A DNA stretch of 21,116 nt from a virus. The translations under genes were made by a program, and so were the position numbers. Below, in pieces: positions 6,708 to 14,147 of this stretch. A model generated the notes under the pieces. The model was not told the DNA's origin and made no database searches. It worked only from the letters and a program-made list of their open reading frames with translations. The stretch covers positions 1 through 21,116 of the IMG/VR virus record IMGVR_UViG_3300009506_000210; one strand, 5' to 3'. The first letter of the stretch is position 1; every line of letters starts with the position of its first letter.

Positions 6708-7703
6708 ATGGCTTTTGCTAATTCGAGCATTACCGATATTATCGCGACAACGATCCAGTCGCGTTCTGGTGTCCTAGCGGACAACTTAACCAACAACAGC
6801 CCATTGCTGATGCGTTTGAAGCAAAAGGGCAATATCCGGCCGTTCTCGGGTGGTAACGTGATTTTGGAAGAAATCATGTACAACGACACCTCAACGAACA
6901 ATGCCAACTCTTACTCGGGTTATGAGCTGCTGAATATCAGCCCGGACAGCCCGATTTCCGCTGCTCAATTCAGCATTACCCAATACGCCGATGCGGTTAC
7001 CATGTCGGGTTTGGAAATGCTGCAAAACAGCGGTAAAGAGCAAATCATTGATCTGCTGGATGGCCGTATGAAGGTTTCGGAGGCGCGCCTTCTGAACCGA
7101 ATTAACGGTGACTTGTATCTTGATGGTACAGGCAACGGCGGCAAGAACATCACTGGTTTGGCTGCGGCCGTCCCTGATGCTCCTACCTCTGGCACCTATG
7201 GCGGCATTGATCGCTCAACTTGGTCATTCTGGCAGTCTCAGAAATATTCTGGCACTACTGATGGCGGAGCTGCTGTTTCCTCTTCCAACATCCTGCAATA
7301 TATGACCACCCTGGCGCTTAACTTGATTCGTAACCAAGACCGCGCTGACCTGATTGTTGCGGATTCGACATATTATGCTTTGTATGCCAACTCCCTGCAA
7401 TCCATCCAGCGTATCACTGATGAAACCTCGGCTGCAGCCGGTTTCGCCTCTCTGAAGTTCTACGGCGGCGGCACTTCTGCAGACGTTATCATGGGTGGTG
7501 GTATTGGTTCCGCTGCAACCTCTGCTCATATGTGGTTCCTGAATACGGACTATATTTTCTTCCGTCCGCACAAGGATCGCAATTTTGTGCCGATTGGCGG
7601 TGAGCGCCAGGCAGTCAACCAAGATGCCATCGTTAAACTGTACGGCTGGGCCGGAAACCTGACTTGCTCGGGTAGCCAGTTCCAAGGCGTTCTGATCGCG
7701 TAA
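6708..7703 (+). CDS. Major capsid protein (HK97-type fold expected)
   Basis: A 331-aa protein preceded by a very strong SD (TAGGAGG, 6696-6702), as expected for the most abundant virion protein. The N-terminal segment VLADNLTNNSPLLMRLKQKG, then IRPFSGG..ILEEIMYND, matches the start of a large class of podophage coat proteins ('nN.LL.rLk..GnIr.vsGG..I..el.Y'). The long helix region (SGLEMLQNSGKEQIIDLLDG, then RMKVSEARLLNRINGDLYLDG) and the beta-rich distal part ending in a hydrophobic GSQFQGVLIA fit the HK97 fold. Flanked by scaffold and decoration genes. Codons are more uniformly C-ending than in neighbours, suggesting selection for high expression. The fold is family inference; the assignment as coat is firm from context and N-terminal pattern. 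Confidence 0.9.
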   Translation: MAFANSSITDIIATTIQSRSGVLADNLTNNSPLLMRLKQKGNIRPFSGGNVILEEIMYNDTSTNNANSYSGYELLNISPDSPISAAQFSITQYADAVTMSGLEMLQNSGKEQIIDLLDGRMKVSEARLLNRINGDLYLDGTGNGGKNITGLAAAVPDAPTSGTYGGIDRSTWSFWQSQKYSGTTDGGAAVSSSNILQYMTTLALNLIRNQDRADLIVADSTYYALYANSLQSIQRITDETSAAAGFASLKFYGGGTSADVIMGGGIGSAATSAHMWFLNTDYIFFRPHKDRNFVPIGGERQAVNQDAIVKLYGWAGNLTCSGSQFQGVLIA

Positions 7704-7714
7704 GGAGAAACATC

Positions 7715-8251
7715 ATGGCTTATACCATTATTGAAAACAACGTTGTCACCTTGCCGATTGCTTCCACTGATTCGGGCGTGACTTTCCCCAATGCCAGCTC
7801 GGCGGCTCCTACGCCTCCACTGGTTCCCGGCATGATTGTTCGTGCACAAGATCCGACTTATGGCGAGGCTGAATTTATCCTGCTTGCAGGTGTGGCTTCA
7901 ACTACCGTTGGCTCGGTTGTTACCTACAACACTTCTAGCTTTACCACTGCGCTGGCACCGGTTGGCACTTACCTGCCACAGCCAATCGCAATTGCAATGT
8001 CCGCAAATACCTCCGCATCCACATGGGGTTGGTATCAAATCAGCGGTATTGCAGTGGTTAGCAAGAGCTCTGCAGTATCTCTGGCAGCGAATGCCCAAGT
8101 TGGCGTGCTGACTGCTGGCTTCATCGCTGGCACCGGTTCCGGCAAAGAGGTTCAGGGTGCTCTAGTGGCTGCTGTGGCTTCTGCAACTGCTGGCCGCACC
8201 ACAGTCCAGGTTGTTCTGGATCGCCCGCACATGCAGGGACGTATCACGTAA
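7715..8251 (+). CDS. Capsid decoration / minor head protein
   Basis: A 178-aa protein starting 12 bp after the coat gene with SD AAGGAG, so expressed with it. It is beta-rich and dominated by Ala, Ser, Thr and Val. The block PGMIVRAQDPTYGEAEFILLA followed by a GSVVTYN segment is characteristic of a protein often encoded right after the coat gene in podophages, with a repeated barrel-like second half (QISGIAVV..., AQVGVLTAGFIAGTGSGKEV) and a conserved end VVLDRPHMQGRIT. Probable function: cementing or decorating the capsid surface. A strong intrinsic terminator follows 11 bp downstream, setting this two-gene unit apart from the rest. The exact position on the particle cannot be told. Confidence 0.7.
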   Translation: MAYTIIENNVVTLPIASTDSGVTFPNASSAAPTPPLVPGMIVRAQDPTYGEAEFILLAGVASTTVGSVVTYNTSSFTTALAPVGTYLPQPIAIAMSANTSASTWGWYQISGIAVVSKSSAVSLAANAQVGVLTAGFIAGTGSGKEVQGALVAAVASATAGRTTVQVVLDRPHMQGRIT

Positions 8252-8262
8252 TATTGAAGTTT

Positions 8263-8305
8263 ATGGCCTCTTCTATAGAGGGGGCCATTTAATTCATTAT
8301 TTTTA
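8263..8305 (+). terminator. Intrinsic (Rho-independent) terminator after the capsid genes
   Basis: A 10-bp stem (8263-8272 with 8279-8288; GGCC core plus wobble pairs, loop CTATAG) is followed by a T-rich tract (TTAATTCATTATTTTT, 8289-8304). This is a textbook arrangement at the end of the coat/decoration unit. Readthrough or a new promoter must serve the genes downstream, which continue on the same strand. Confidence 0.85.
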
Positions 8306-8315
8306 ATACTACTAT

Positions 8316-8345
8316 TTGAAATATGGATTTCGATGCCATTGCTAT
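8316..8345 (+). promoter_or_regulatory. Possible promoter downstream of the terminator
   Basis: TTGAAA (8316-8321, 5 of 6 to the -35 consensus) and TGCTAT (8340-8345, 3 of 6 to the -10) are 18 bp apart, 32 bp before the DUF115-methyltransferase start. The -10 match is poor; the main argument is the need for transcription to resume after the terminator. Confidence 0.25.
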
Positions 8346-8376
8346 CTCCAATTGCTCGAAATAAACAGGAGAAATA

Positions 8377-9747
8377 ATGCAGCTTCCTTACAGCAATCTC
8401 CAAATCTCCCATCAAAATCCGGGCGCATCCAAGCCTCTGATTTTCCCAATCGAAGTAATTTGCAATACTGACGATGAAATATTGCACGAAAACATCCGAA
8501 TTAACTCGCGCCGCTCAGGTAAATGGATAAAGTTAGAAAAAGAACACGACAAATTGGCCGTTCTTTGTGGAAGCGGCCCTAGCCTGGCGAATTACATCGA
8601 TGAGATACGAGAAAAGCAGGAAAACGGCGCAATTATCTATGCGATGAATGGTGCGGCACAATATTTGGCAAAACGCGGGATTATTCCTCAATATCAGGTA
8701 ATAATTGATGCACGTCCAGAAACAGCAGATTTAGTTGGCCCTGCATTACAACACTTATTTGCCTCTCAAGTGCACCCGGATTGTTTTGATAAAGCCGATG
8801 CGCTCATTTGGCATCTTCAGATTGAGGGAATCGATGATCTGCTCCCTGAGTACAATGATGATTATTGCCTGATTGGCGGGGCGGCATCAGTTGGCAATAC
8901 TGCGACCTGTCTTGCATATGCAATGGGGTTCAGATATCTAGATATATACGGATATGATTCGAGCAACAAGGGTAAAAGCTCTCATGTGGCCCATCAGGCT
9001 ATCAATGATGGAGAGCCCATGGCTTCAGTTAGGTTTGGCGGTAAAGATTATATGTGTAGCCTCACCATGAAGCTCCAAGCCGAAAAATTCATGGATACCG
9101 CGCGCGCTTTGAAATCTTATGGGGTAGAAATCAACGTATTTGGCTATGGTCTTTTGCCTGATATGTGGAAGGCATGGGGCGAAATCGGAAAACTTGATGA
9201 GCAAGCGAAATATGAACTCATGTGGACGCACCCGGAATACCGGAATGTCGCCCCTGGCGAAGAGTGCGCGGATATTTTCATCGAAAAGTGTAAGCCTGCT
9301 GGCAGAGTGATAGATTTTGGCTGTGGTACGGGGCGCGGCGGTTTGAAAATCAAGGAATCAGGCTGTGAGGTGCTATTACTTGATTTTACCGAGAATTCAC
9401 GCGACTTGGAGGCAATGACACTTCCGTTTATGCAGGTTGATCTGACTAAGCAAATCGACGTTACGCCAGCCGAGTTCGGATACTGTACCGATGTAATGGA
9501 ACACATCGAGCCGGGAAAGGTTGAGGATGTGATTCGCAATATTCTGGCAGTTGCCCGGAATGTATTTTTCCAGATTTCTCTTGTTCCTGATGCCATGGGC
9601 GCACTCATTGGGCAGGATCTTCATTTATCAGTCCACCCATATACATGGTGGGCCGATAAGTTTGCTGAGCTTGGTTATTCGGTCAATTGGTCGATCGATC
9701 AGGGAATTTCGGCAATCTATTACGTTTCCAACCACTTGGAGAATTAA
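8377..9747 (+). CDS. Fusion: DUF115/MptE-like domain + SAM-dependent methyltransferase
   Basis: A 456-aa protein with SD AGGAG. Residues about 55-260 match the DUF115 superfamily: GSGPSL at 65-70, then YAMNGAAQYL..RGIIPQYQVIID with D111, IGGAASVGNTATCLAYAMGF at 166-185 and DIYGYDSS at 189-196. Characterised relatives are archaeal 6-hydroxymethylpterin pyrophosphokinase MptE and bacterial Maf flagellin glycosyltransferases. Residues about 285-456 are a class I methyltransferase: motif I VIDFGCGTG (311-319), acidic D336 after strand 2, and TDVMEHI (371-377), the usual motif IV area. The two domains are joined by a linker (LDEQAKYELMWTHPEYRNVA) like that preceding phage Methyltransf_11-type domains. 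It sits in the virion operon between capsid and adaptor genes, so a virion or surface glycan modification is plausible but unproven. A target of pterin, nucleotide or sugar cannot be chosen from sequence. Confidence 0.8.
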   Translation: MQLPYSNLQISHQNPGASKPLIFPIEVICNTDDEILHENIRINSRRSGKWIKLEKEHDKLAVLCGSGPSLANYIDEIREKQENGAIIYAMNGAAQYLAKRGIIPQYQVIIDARPETADLVGPALQHLFASQVHPDCFDKADALIWHLQIEGIDDLLPEYNDDYCLIGGAASVGNTATCLAYAMGFRYLDIYGYDSSNKGKSSHVAHQAINDGEPMASVRFGGKDYMCSLTMKLQAEKFMDTARALKSYGVEINVFGYGLLPDMWKAWGEIGKLDEQAKYELMWTHPEYRNVAPGEECADIFIEKCKPAGRVIDFGCGTGRGGLKIKESGCEVLLLDFTENSRDLEAMTLPFMQVDLTKQIDVTPAEFGYCTDVMEHIEPGKVEDVIRNILAVARNVFFQISLVPDAMGALIGQDLHLSVHPYTWWADKFAELGYSVNWSIDQGISAIYYVSNHLEN

Positions 9748-9748
9748 A

Positions 9749-10432
9749 ATGTTAGCTTCCGACCTAGACAATCCAGAATATGCAGGTGCACAAAACCCGG
9801 ACAATCGCCTTGCTGTGCAGTTCTACATCAAAGCGGTGAAAAATGAATTCGAGAGCCAACAACAAGGGCGGCCAATATTTCAGGATATGGATTTCGTGAA
9901 AATATTTGTGCCTGGCGACTCCACAAGCGTCATTGATACGATCGCACGCGATGACCACAAGCGCCGGTTCCCGATTCAGTGGGCACGCTTTCAGAATAGC
10001 AAGGAACAGGAAACCTACGAAATGGGAACGCCTATTTCAGAATGGCCGCGAGTTACCAAATCCCAAGCAGAAATGCTGCGTGCGCTAAAATTCTACACTG
10101 TGGAATCGATTGCAAGCGCATCTGATTCACAAATTCAGAGCATTGGGATGCTGGCCGGCACTTCCCCGTACAATTTCCGCGACATGGCCCAGAATTTCCT
10201 GAAGTCTGCCCAAGGTGAGGTGATACTGAATGAAGTCGAGCAAAAAGCCACTTTTGCCGAGCAGGAAAATGAAGAATTGCGCGCCCAACTTGCCGAAAGT
10301 AATAGGCAAAACGAAGAAAACACTGCTAAACTTGCAGAGCTTCAAGAGCAAATGGCTCAACTCCTTGAGCAGAAACCAGTGCCAGCTAAGCGTGGCCGCA
10401 AGCCAAAGGCAACGCCGGAGGCTTCTGAATAA
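9749..10432 (+). CDS. Coiled-coil phage protein with basic AT-hook-like tail
   Basis: A 227-aa protein from ATG 9749, one base after the previous stop; the frame is open 198 bp further upstream but that overlaps the methyltransferase, so the coupled ATG is preferred. Residues 1-100 contain a conserved block seen in many podophages (GRPIFQDMDFVKIFVPGD, DDHKRRFPIQWARFQ). A helical middle (FKxYTVESIASASDSQIQSI-like region) leads to a coiled coil at about 155-210 rich in Glu/Gln/Leu, and the end KRGRKPK resembles an AT-hook-type DNA-binding tail. The position before the adaptor suggests a head-tail or DNA-associated morphogenesis role; no function is known to me. It carries the 21-bp sequence (10349-10369) shared exactly with the scaffold gene. 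Confidence 0.7.
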   Translation: MLASDLDNPEYAGAQNPDNRLAVQFYIKAVKNEFESQQQGRPIFQDMDFVKIFVPGDSTSVIDTIARDDHKRRFPIQWARFQNSKEQETYEMGTPISEWPRVTKSQAEMLRALKFYTVESIASASDSQIQSIGMLAGTSPYNFRDMAQNFLKSAQGEVILNEVEQKATFAEQENEELRAQLAESNRQNEENTAKLAELQEQMAQLLEQKPVPAKRGRKPKATPEASE

Positions 10433-12208: not shown

Positions 12209-13725
12209 AGCGTGTTTCTCGATCAACTTCGATTCAAGCCCCAATTCTGGGTTGGAATACGCGCGATCCTATCTCGAATATGTCAATCCAGAATGCGGCC
12301 ATCCTTACAAACTGGTTTCCCAATGCTACTGACCTGAGATTACGCAAGGGCTACTCAAATCATGTTACCGGAATTGGCAATGAGGTTCAATCTTTGATGG
12401 TTTATTCCGGGGCGGCTTCTGCAAAAATGTTCGGGGCGGCCGGCACTGATTTCTATAACGTTTCCTCGGCAGGAGCAGTCGGGGCGGCGGTGGTAACTGG
12501 CCTATCAAATTCAAAATGGGAATATGAGAATATTTCTACCTCTGGCGGCAACTTCATGTTGTGCGTTAATGGTGCGGATAAATTACGCGGCTATGATGGT
12601 ACAAATTGGTGGGCTGATGGCGATGGGACACATGACATAACCGGGTTTGATACTTCGACAGCCTCCAATATTCTTTTGTTCAAAAATCGAATCTGGATGA
12701 GCAAGAAGCAAACACTTGATTTGTACTATCTCGGCACTTCTTCAATCGGCGGGGCGGCCTATCTGTTCCCCCTTCAATCCATAGCGAGGAAAGGTGGCTA
12801 TATCGTTTGCATGGCAGCCTGGACGATGGATGCCGGTTATGGTGTGGATGATATGGTGGCCTTTATGACTTCCAACGGTGAGGTCATTGTTTACAGGGGC
12901 ACAGATCCTTCCAGCGCATCAACGTGGACGCTTGTTGGTGTTTGGGAAATCGGTTCCCCGGTTGGTACTCGGTGCATGTTCAAATGGTCTGGGGATTTGC
13001 TGGTATTGGGGCAGGATGGTTTGATGCCAATGTCCGCTGCTTTGCAGTCCACCCGAATCAATAACACAATGGCCCTCACAAATATCATCCAGCCAACTAT
13101 TTCCAGCTCAATGATGACTTACGGCTCAAATTTCGGCTGGGAGATTCAATACTACCCTGGCGCAAATATGCTGTTGATTAATGTTCCGATTGCCCTTGGA
13201 TCACAAGAACAATATGTGATGAATACTATTACAAAAGCATGGTGCCGATTTACTGGATGGAATGCGAACTGTTTTGCAATCTTTAATGATGAGCTCTATT
13301 TCGGAGGTTCCGGAGTGGTTTGCAAGGCATGGAATGGATTTACGGATAATGCTGCCTCGATCAGCGGGGAAGCTGCACAAGCATTTAGCTATTTTGGGAA
13401 TCCGGGGCAGACAAAACGCTTTACTATGATGCGGCCTCTATTGGCCACAACTGGCAGTGTTTCGCTTCAGGCATCAATGAATATTGATTTTTCGACCCAG
13501 AGCAATTATTCGCCCCTTTCCTTGACTCCTATTACCTATGCAACTTGGGATGCGGCAACCTGGGATACTTCACCATGGGCTGATTCCTTGACCATTAGCC
13601 AGCAGTGGCAGGGGGTGGCCGGGGTTGGATATTCAGGAGGGGTAGAGATTGAGGCCATGACAAACGGCGTAGATTGCCGGTGGATTTCAACCGATATTGT
13701 TTATGAGCTCGGGGCCGTACTGTGA
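12205..13725 (+). CDS. Tail hub / DNA-stabilisation protein (P22 gp10-like)
   Basis: A 506-aa protein (P22 gp10 is 472 aa). The N-terminal block APILGWNTRDPISNM, NAAILTNWFPNATDLRLRKG (about residues 12-50) is the diagnostic start of a large podophage family annotated as packaged-DNA stabilisation or tail hub proteins. The middle shows repeated Gly/aromatic blades (VNGADKLRGYDGTNWWADGD, WSGDLLVLGQDGLMPMSA, FNDELYFGGSGVV) consistent with a beta-propeller, and the C-terminus is beta-rich. It closes the portal after packaging and serves as attachment hub for fibres. Coupled to the upstream gene by ATGA and to the GNAT gene by GTGA. Assignment is by N-terminal block, length and gene order; the P22 analogy is functional rather than by strong similarity. 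Confidence 0.8.
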   Translation: MKRVSRSTSIQAPILGWNTRDPISNMSIQNAAILTNWFPNATDLRLRKGYSNHVTGIGNEVQSLMVYSGAASAKMFGAAGTDFYNVSSAGAVGAAVVTGLSNSKWEYENISTSGGNFMLCVNGADKLRGYDGTNWWADGDGTHDITGFDTSTASNILLFKNRIWMSKKQTLDLYYLGTSSIGGAAYLFPLQSIARKGGYIVCMAAWTMDAGYGVDDMVAFMTSNGEVIVYRGTDPSSASTWTLVGVWEIGSPVGTRCMFKWSGDLLVLGQDGLMPMSAALQSTRINNTMALTNIIQPTISSSMMTYGSNFGWEIQYYPGANMLLINVPIALGSQEQYVMNTITKAWCRFTGWNANCFAIFNDELYFGGSGVVCKAWNGFTDNAASISGEAAQAFSYFGNPGQTKRFTMMRPLLATTGSVSLQASMNIDFSTQSNYSPLSLTPITYATWDAATWDTSPWADSLTISQQWQGVAGVGYSGGVEIEAMTNGVDCRWISTDIVYELGAVL

Positions 13726-14147
13726 TTGTTTACGGGCCAGAATGGAATGATATTCTCGGGCAATGGTTGAGTGAAAAGAATGGCGGCCAGTATGTCCCGG
13801 GCAGTATGACTTGCTTGGGATTATTGGGCGAAGACAAGGTAATAGCGGCCTGCGGGTTTGAGAATTACATCGTCAATTCAATTTGCGGCCACATTGCCTT
13901 GGATGGGAAGCCTGGAAAAAAGTTTCTTGTTTTCCTTGGAATGTGTTTCCAATATGTATTTCACCAAACGAAGGTGAAAAAGCTGATTGCCTTTGTGGAT
14001 AGTGAAAATGAGAAATCAGTCCGCCTTAATAGGCATATGGGTTTTGTCGAGGAAGGCCGGATAAAGGATGCCGGAAAGCATGGTGATATGATAATTTTTA
14101 CGATGACTGAAGACCAATGCTATATCTTGCAAAAATATTTGAAATGA
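13722..14147 (+). CDS. GNAT-family N-acetyltransferase
   Basis: A 141-aa protein starting at GTG 13722 inside the hub stop (GTGA), with no SD of its own, so made by coupled re-initiation. It has the layout of a compact GNAT domain: an early strand (VIAACGFENYI), a central region with KFLVFLGMCFQYVF helix, and the C-terminal signature FVDSENEKSVRLNRHMGFVE (residues 91-110), matching the GNAT 'v...N..s..ly.k.GF.e.g' strand-loop-helix. The acetyl-CoA pyrophosphate loop (Q/RxxGxG/A) is not clear; GKPGKK at 62-67 may take that place. The family transfers acetyl from acetyl-CoA to amines; here the substrate is unknown. GNATs occur next to tail genes in several podophages, so modification of a virion protein is possible. 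Confidence 0.75.
   Translation: MIVYGPEWNDILGQWLSEKNGGQYVPGSMTCLGLLGEDKVIAACGFENYIVNSICGHIALDGKPGKKFLVFLGMCFQYVFHQTKVKKLIAFVDSENEKSVRLNRHMGFVEEGRIKDAGKHGDMIIFTMTEDQCYILQKYLK

What the first reader, a model, noticed from the sequence alone, without database searches (positions are those of the whole stretch)
8377..9747. DUF115/MptE-like domain fused to a SAM methyltransferase inside the virion operon
The N-terminal half carries GSGPSL, a conserved Asp (D111) and GGAASVGNTATC, the hallmarks of the DUF115 superfamily (MptE pterin pyrophosphokinase, Maf flagellin glycosyltransferases). The C-terminal half is a complete methyltransferase with GCGTG and DVMEHI. The pair in one chain, placed just after capsid and decoration genes and behind its own terminator/promoter gap, suggests a two-step modification such as adding a sugar or nucleotide group and then methylating it. 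Virion proteins rich in Ser/Thr are the nearest candidate targets.
Basis: partly seen in the sequence, partly recalled or inferred. Interest (0 to 1): 0.7.

Follow-up and report, generated by a model that had tools for sequence, protein, structure and literature searches.

The report
Maf-like transferase–methyltransferase in phage virion operons
An uncultured phage carries, inside its coat-gene operon, one enzyme made of a sugar-transferase-like half and a methyltransferase half, and the same two activities are paired again and again, in different arrangements, among the virion genes of unrelated phages, which suggests a widespread way for phages to decorate and cap their own particles.

Summary
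ORF 8377-9747 (456 aa) joins a DUF115 domain (PF01973, E 3e-17) to a class I SAM methyltransferase, between the decoration gene and head-tail genes. An AlphaFold model (pLDDT 91) matches the catalytic domain of the flagellin glycosyltransferase Maf best (Z 21.7), then archaeal pterin pyrophosphokinase (Z 14.7), then GT42 sialyltransferases (Z 10.6). Nucleotide-site residues of both halves are invariant in 44 diverse homologues. The fusion is common: 239 relatives in IMG/VR. In 76 of the 80 best loci the decoration gene is found and lies upstream; in the rest the contig is cut. The same pair also occurs in reversed order (about 49 loci), as separate neighbouring genes, and with a different methyltransferase plus a glycosyltransferase in one chain, in virion modules of unrelated phages. 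Sulfotransferase genes adjoin some pairs. This favours glycan work over pterin chemistry. Best reading: a phage-encoded virion glycosyltransferase with a methyl-capping domain. Donor and acceptor are unknown; the adjacent decoration protein is the leading candidate (24 of 24 co-occurrence, but few independent events). It works like Maf but is not a Maf. The concept is known from mycobacteriophages; this enzyme architecture is a new variant. Nothing was tested biochemically.

The parts
8377..9747 (+). Fused DUF115 (Maf/MptE-like) - class I SAM methyltransferase gene, 456 aa
   Evidence: 239 relatives in IMG/VR; AF2 model pLDDT 90.8
8377..9174 (+). DUF115 / Maf-catalytic-like domain, residues about 1-266; invariant S69, N91, D111, G192, D194, H203, Q207, Q234, G258
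   Evidence: VIA-align to Maf 5mu5 Z 21.7, rmsd 3.4, 222 aligned; MjHPPK Z 14.7; Cst-I/II Z 10.6; invariants in 64 sequences
9175..9192 (+). Linker, about residues 267-272
   Evidence: relative L038 is split into two ORFs at this place
9193..9744 (+). Class I SAM methyltransferase domain, residues about 273-456; G315-x-G-x-G, D336, D372-V-M-E-H
   Evidence: fold Z about 17-20 to class I methyltransferases
8263..8287 (+). Hairpin between decoration gene and fusion gene (terminator-like or transcript-setting)
   Evidence: MFE z -3.3; a strong fold follows the decoration gene in 76 of 76 loci
7715..8251 (+). Decoration/virion structural protein (phrog_29386); leading candidate acceptor
   Evidence: co-occurrence with DUF115 24/24 vs 4/37, few independent events
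6708..7703 (+). Major head protein (phrog_9953)
   Evidence: 48-51% identical to MCPs of Mx8, Mx9, ppBjS10J-1 and BUCT555
9749..10432 (+). Next gene (phrog_20268, function unknown), starts 2 nt after the fusion's stop

Best explanation
The gene encodes a bifunctional virion-decorating enzyme. The N-terminal half is a Maf-like glycosyltransferase that most likely moves a sugar (perhaps a nonulosonic acid or Kdo from a host CMP-sugar) onto a phage structural protein in the cytoplasm before or during assembly. The tethered C-terminal half uses SAM to methylate the added sugar, capping it. The first candidate acceptor is the adjacent decoration protein. Shown here: both folds, both intact nucleotide-site motifs, the recurrent coupling, and the place in virion modules. 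Inferred: that DUF115 transfers a sugar, that the methyl goes on that sugar, the donor, the acceptor, and the benefit (altered surface, evasion of degradation, binding or recognition).
For: (1) DUF115 model nearest to Maf: Z 21.7 over 222 residues, against 14.7 for archaeal HPPK and 10.6 for GT42 sialyltransferases. (2) Invariant putative active-site residues across both domain orders and standalone copies. (3) The same genome slot in phages with related head proteins holds DUF115 alone, DUF115-MTase, GT-DUF115 (L248) or GT-DUF115-Methyltransf_24 (L237, L305); the GT is phrog_1962, 'glycosyltransferase', 1e-33 to 1e-39. (4) Independent pairings: reversed MTase-DUF115 fusions in other phages; MTase followed by a DUF115-like gene right after the MCP in ctUtU524 and a Lysobacter dokdonensis prophage; around standalone MTases, DUF115-type genes 43 within 1.6 kb versus 1 outside, sulfotransferase 11 versus 0, GT 6 versus 0. 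(5) Synteny decoration-fusion-g9749 in the informative loci. (6) Precedent: phage O-methyltransferase plus glycosyltransferase genes whose products modify capsid and tail tube proteins (PMC11600133, citing Freeman et al. 2023). (7) Maf accepts CMP-Neu5Ac and CMP-Kdo (PMC11339370).
Against: No biochemical or mass data. No CMP-sugar synthetase in 13 longer relatives, so the donor would have to come from the host. Cultured relatives live without the gene. DUF115 folds also serve as pyrophosphokinases (8sd5). Two profiles in the neighbour count (small DUF115 and sulfotransferase) were trained on the same loci. The decoration-protein link rests on 4-5 independent changes (sign test not significant), and adjacent genes can move together. 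The P0004-type partner is only weakly tied to DUF115.
Confidence: 0.6

Rival explanations
1. Two separate protein modifications: DUF115 glycosylates virion proteins, while the methyltransferase methylates the virion protein itself (for example lysine), not the sugar.
For: Flagellins of Aeromonas caviae and Shewanella carry both nonulosonate glycans and lysine methylation (PMC9290775). The methyltransferase fold is generic and does not tell the substrate.
Against: Tight fusion in two orders and swapping with an unrelated methyltransferase family (Methyltransf_24) next to a glycosyltransferase suit serial work on one glycan better.
Confidence: 0.17
2. The enzyme alters a host glycan (surface polysaccharide, glycolipid or precursor) during infection, for instance to exclude superinfecting phages, and only shares late expression with virion genes.
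For: Related folds (Cst-I/II) act on lipooligosaccharide; phrog_1962 is classed 'moron, auxiliary metabolic gene and host takeover'.
Against: Persistent location between decoration and head-tail genes or elsewhere in late structural modules in many lineages. Late expression is a poor time to alter the host surface.
Confidence: 0.1
3. An MptE-type enzyme: the DUF115 half is a pyrophosphokinase (or other nucleotide-group transferase) making a modified pterin or nucleotide that the methyltransferase then methylates.
For: Pfam name and curated hit PF01973; MjHPPK is the second-best fold, Z 14.7.
Against: Maf is clearly nearer (Z 21.7). Position N91 is Asp in MjHPPK. No GTP cyclohydrolase in 13 longer relatives. 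Fusion to glycosyltransferases in the same slot.
Confidence: 0.08

Closest known systems
Maf flagellin O-glycosyltransferases (Magnetospirillum Maf, PDB 5mu5)
   Same: Central Maf_flag10/DUF115 catalytic domain over its full length (Z 21.7); GxGPS, the FGxD Asp, and the His and Gln after it are shared; a Rossmann methyltransferase-like domain accompanies it
   Different: Maf's N-terminal domain is only weakly similar to methyltransferases and its C-terminal domain is helical (PMC11339370); here a complete methyltransferase stands C-terminal, no helical domain, no flagellin, phage virion operon
Archaeal 6-hydroxymethyl-7,8-dihydropterin pyrophosphokinase MptE (PDB 8sd5)
   Same: Same Pfam family PF01973 and fold (Z 14.7)
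   Different: No pterin genes found, fused methyltransferase, N91 versus Asp, lower structural similarity than Maf
GT42 sialyltransferases Cst-I/Cst-II
   Same: Fold of the DUF115 half (Z 10.6)
   Different: No sequence match in the profile search; acceptor is lipooligosaccharide (general knowledge)
Mycobacteriophage virion glycosylation loci (O-methyltransferase plus glycosyltransferases; Freeman et al. 2023, cited in PMC11600133 and PMC13313380)
   Same: Phage-encoded sugar transfer plus methylation applied to capsid and tail tube proteins
   Different: Separate genes in actinobacteriophages; homology to the DUF115 gene was not tested here
Uncultured Caudovirales 'MptE-like' proteins in BFVD (A0A6J7XC21, A0A6J5PVH5, A0A6J5L5C1)
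   Same: Best viral structure matches (E 5e-25 to 7e-20); probably the same family
   Different: Annotated by name transfer only; no function or coupling described in the record

Membership tests
DUF115 / MptE-like superfamily (PF01973) | Score above Pfam's curated cut-off | tested here: met
   63.2 bits vs 34.6
DUF115 / MptE-like superfamily (PF01973) | Fold shared with solved members | tested here: met
   5mu5 Z 21.7; 8sd5 Z 14.7
Maf flagellin glycosyltransferase | Central Maf_flag10 catalytic domain | tested here: met
   222 residues aligned, Z 21.7, rmsd 3.4
Maf flagellin glycosyltransferase | Three-domain layout with N-terminal Rossmann-like and C-terminal helical domain around the catalytic one | tested here: not met
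   Window protein has no N-terminal domain and no helical C-terminal domain
Maf flagellin glycosyltransferase | Flagellin as acceptor, gene linked to flagellin genes | tested here: not met
   No flagellar gene recognised; the neighbours identified are phage virion genes
Maf flagellin glycosyltransferase | Transfer of a CMP-nonulosonic acid to Ser/Thr | not testable with these tools
   needs enzymology
MptE / archaeal HPPK | ATP:6-hydroxymethylpterin diphosphotransferase activity | not testable with these tools
   needs enzymology
MptE / archaeal HPPK | Accompanying pterin pathway genes | tested here: inconclusive
   no GTP cyclohydrolase I in 13 relatives, but these may be incomplete contigs and the host could supply it
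Class I SAM methyltransferase | Rossmann fold with motif I GxGxG and acidic end of strand 2 | tested here: met
   G315/G317/G319, D336 invariant in 44; Z 17-20 to class I enzymes
Phage virion glycosylation system | Sugar-transfer and methyltransferase genes encoded by the phage | tested here: inconclusive
   met by fold and by GT fusions in the same slot, but sugar transfer itself is not shown
Phage virion glycosylation system | Glycosylated capsid or tail proteins | not testable with these tools
   needs mass spectrometry of virions

The most novel reading that the evidence does not exclude
A widespread, modular virion-glycan writer: a Maf-like transferase that phages of unrelated lineages have joined several times, in either order, to exchangeable tailoring modules (two methyltransferase families, a GT-A-type glycosyltransferase, sulfotransferases), kept inside the head/tail module and matched to the decoration protein it modifies.
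Probability: 0.45. Interest if true: 0.75.

Novelty: new variant of a known kind. Interest (0 to 1): 0.58.

Why it matters
Phage virions are usually treated as bare protein. If these enzymes glycosylate and methylate particles, surface glycan writing is common among uncultured phages, comes from an enzyme family known mainly from flagellin, and is modular. It would give a marker gene for glycosylated phages, a new source of protein O-glycosyltransferases for glycoengineering, and a concrete acceptor hypothesis (the decoration protein) to test. It would also correct the name 'MptE-like pterin kinase' now attached to these phage proteins.

Tried and rejected
Pterin/queuosine-type pathway: no GTP cyclohydrolase I in 13 longer relatives. 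Phage-made CMP-sugar: no PF02348; GT2 family: none. Defence function: no PADLOC match. Own promoter: none in the gap. Named phages with the whole fusion: none in 50,697 records; only the methyltransferase half in ctUtU524. Ser/Thr richness as acceptor clue: not discriminating. Homology between the decoration protein and the phrog_644 proteins that flank the reversed fusions: none found. Decoration-protein co-occurrence: strong by counts (Fisher 3e-13) but only 4-5 independent changes, not significant on the tree. Short decoration protein of DUF115-less relatives versus the long one: only a weak profile match (probability 15%). C-terminal domain of the L298 fusion: no family or PDB match. Literature searches found no paper on phage DUF115 proteins in the held library. 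The papers on the Maf structure and on mycobacteriophage glycosylation are not held, so they are cited through others. Other fold families absent from the structure lists are not excluded.

Full report
What is there. ORF 8377-9747 (+) codes for 456 residues. Pfam places PF01973 (MptE-like, DUF115) at 56-197, far over its cut-off, and methyltransferase models at 303-410; PHROGs gives a methyltransferase family at 309-433. The window is the whole of a 21,116-base virus record, probably a fragment. Its other genes are a terminase, portal, scaffold, major head protein, decoration protein and head-tail/tail genes of a phage whose portal and head proteins are 34-51% identical to those of Myxococcus phages Mx8/Mx9, Bradyrhizobium phage ppBjS10J-1 and Stenotrophomonas phage BUCT555. 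The next gene starts two bases after the fusion's stop. A strong hairpin follows the decoration gene, and a strong fold is found there in 76 of 76 loci. No promoter-like site lies in the gap. The hairpin probably lowers expression of the enzyme relative to the coat genes (inference).

Structure. AlphaFold2 with 44 sequences gave pLDDT 90.8; the DUF115 half alone with 64 sequences gave pLDDT 94.1 and pTM 0.91. The second-look aligner gave Maf 5mu5 Z 21.7 over residues 2-267, Methanocaldococcus HPPK (MptE) Z 14.7, Cst-I/Cst-II sialyltransferases Z 10.6, mammalian sialyltransferases 7-9 and thiamin pyrophosphokinases 7-9. So the match to Maf covers the whole first half, beyond the Pfam stretch. 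The second half matches class I methyltransferases at Z 17-20 with no one substrate class standing out. Across both domain orders and standalone copies S69, N91, D111, G192, D194, H203, Q207, Q234 and G258 are invariant. In the profile alignment with Maf, S69, D194, H203 and Q207 are kept, D111 is Glu and N91 is Gly; HPPK has Asp at N91 (read from the printed alignment). The methyltransferase motifs are invariant too. Both halves look catalytically intact.

Relatives of the whole protein. A viral-contig scan found 239 relatives, 80 kept, 41-73% identical, nearly all full-length fusions; one (L038) is split into two ORFs at the linker. The order head protein - decoration - fusion - g9749 - tail recurs: the decoration gene was found in 76 of 81 records (window included), the head protein in 72 and g9749 in 70, and the missing cases are mainly contig ends. 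No named phage in the collection searched holds the fusion, and Mx8, ppBjS10J-1, BUCT555 and ctMlz233 lack it at the same place. In bacterial genomes the one scan found the fusion in phage-like contexts, among them a 649-kb Isosphaeraceae contig (L088, probably a prophage), plus standalone methyltransferases in Chlamydiae and others; the scan used methyltransferase motifs, so fusions lacking them would be missed.

Recurrent coupling. The two domains meet in several further arrangements. Reversed fusions (methyltransferase first) occur in about 49 loci, mostly of phages without homologues of the window's virion genes; most lie between two related phrog_644 proteins downstream of a virion structural gene, and L093 follows a gene that looks capsid-like by eye (no Pfam match). 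In siphovirus ctUtU524 and a Lysobacter dokdonensis prophage the methyltransferase is followed by a DUF115-like gene directly after the major head protein (in Lysobacter the head protein is named by its likeness to that of ctUtU524). Around 52 standalone methyltransferases, DUF115-type genes numbered 43 within 1.6 kb (151 kb searched) and 1 outside (310 kb); sulfotransferases 11 and 0; phrog_1962-type glycosyltransferases 6 and 0. The small DUF115 and sulfotransferase profiles were trained on these neighbours, so their counts are partly circular; the glycosyltransferase profile was trained on other loci. The small neighbour family is a remote DUF115 relative (hhalign probability 97.5%, E 5e-12), and PF17784/PF13469 identify the sulfotransferase. 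Some loci of this group have a major head protein upstream and a minor tail protein downstream.

The slot itself. A scan with the window's head protein gave, with four cultured relatives, 61 loci with a usable downstream anchor. DUF115 is present in 24: 12 with this methyltransferase and 12 without. The latter are DUF115 alone, GT-DUF115 (L248), GT-DUF115-Methyltransf_24 (L237, L305) and DUF115 with an unknown C-terminal domain (L298). A dedicated glycosyltransferase fused to DUF115 at this very place, and a different methyltransferase family recruited beside it, are the strongest pointers to glycan work.

Candidate acceptor. All 24 DUF115-bearing loci have the decoration protein, against 4 of 37 without DUF115 (Fisher 3e-13). 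Many DUF115-less relatives have instead a protein of about 97 residues that matches only the first part of the decoration protein, weakly. On the head-protein tree there are only 5 changes of DUF115, the sign test is not significant, and the genes are neighbours, so this is a lead, not proof.

Mechanism. Most likely the DUF115 half transfers a sugar from a host nucleotide sugar to a virion protein and the methyltransferase caps it. Maf enzymes accept CMP-Neu5Ac and CMP-Kdo (PMC11339370), and CMP-Kdo exists in most Gram-negative hosts (general knowledge), which would fit the lack of a CMP-sugar synthetase in 13 longer relatives. Phage O-methyltransferase plus glycosyltransferase genes whose products modify capsid and tail tube proteins are known in mycobacteriophages (PMC11600133; PMC13313380). 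Steps shown: folds, intact motifs, coupling, place. Steps inferred: sugar transfer, methyl on sugar, donor, acceptor, benefit.

Comparison. It is a DUF115-superfamily protein and a class I methyltransferase by test. It is not a Maf in the strict sense, since the flanking Maf domains and flagellin are missing, but probably works like one. The label 'MptE-like' should not be read as a pterin kinase. The idea of phage virion glycosylation is not new; the Maf-like/methyltransferase architecture and its repeated assembly are a new variant. Limits: uncultured sequences, redundancy among contigs, name transfer, and no chemistry.

Noticed in passing
L092:4448-5872, L093:2168-3616 and L102-L148: The same two domains fused in reversed order (methyltransferase then DUF115) in other phages; most lie between two related phrog_644 proteins.
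   Followed up: yes
L237:6180-8486, L305:6580-8577, L308:1141-3264: Triple fusions glycosyltransferase (phrog_1962) - DUF115 - Methyltransf_24; in L237 and L305 the gene occupies the same genome slot as the window's fusion.
   Followed up: yes
L171:6546-7142, L186:1582-2175 and others (11 loci): Sulfotransferase genes next to a small DUF115-like gene and a methyltransferase inside phage structural modules.
   Followed up: partly
L004:9305-10132 and L016:9362-10129: A second, standalone DUF115 gene directly after the fusion gene.
   Followed up: partly
L094:6968-9204 (Lysobacter dokdonensis DS-58): Prophage in a cultured strain with head protein, methyltransferase, DUF115-like gene and head-tail connector in a row; a practical test system.
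   Followed up: partly
L095:7965-8603, L096:3307-3918, L097:7989-8597: Standalone relatives of the methyltransferase in Chlamydiae MAG contigs without obvious phage neighbours.
   Followed up: no
L298:4575-6257: DUF115 with an unidentified C-terminal domain of about 295 aa at the same slot; looks GT-B-like by eye only.
   Followed up: partly
window 13722-14147: GNAT acetyltransferase gene inside the tail module, conserved in Mx8-like phages with or without the fusion.
   Followed up: no
window 8252-8376 and relatives: Strong hairpin after the decoration gene in 76 of 76 loci, probably setting lower expression downstream.
   Followed up: partly
L254:6015-6305 and similar: Relatives without DUF115 carry a short (about 97 aa) protein in place of the 178-aa decoration protein.
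   Followed up: partly
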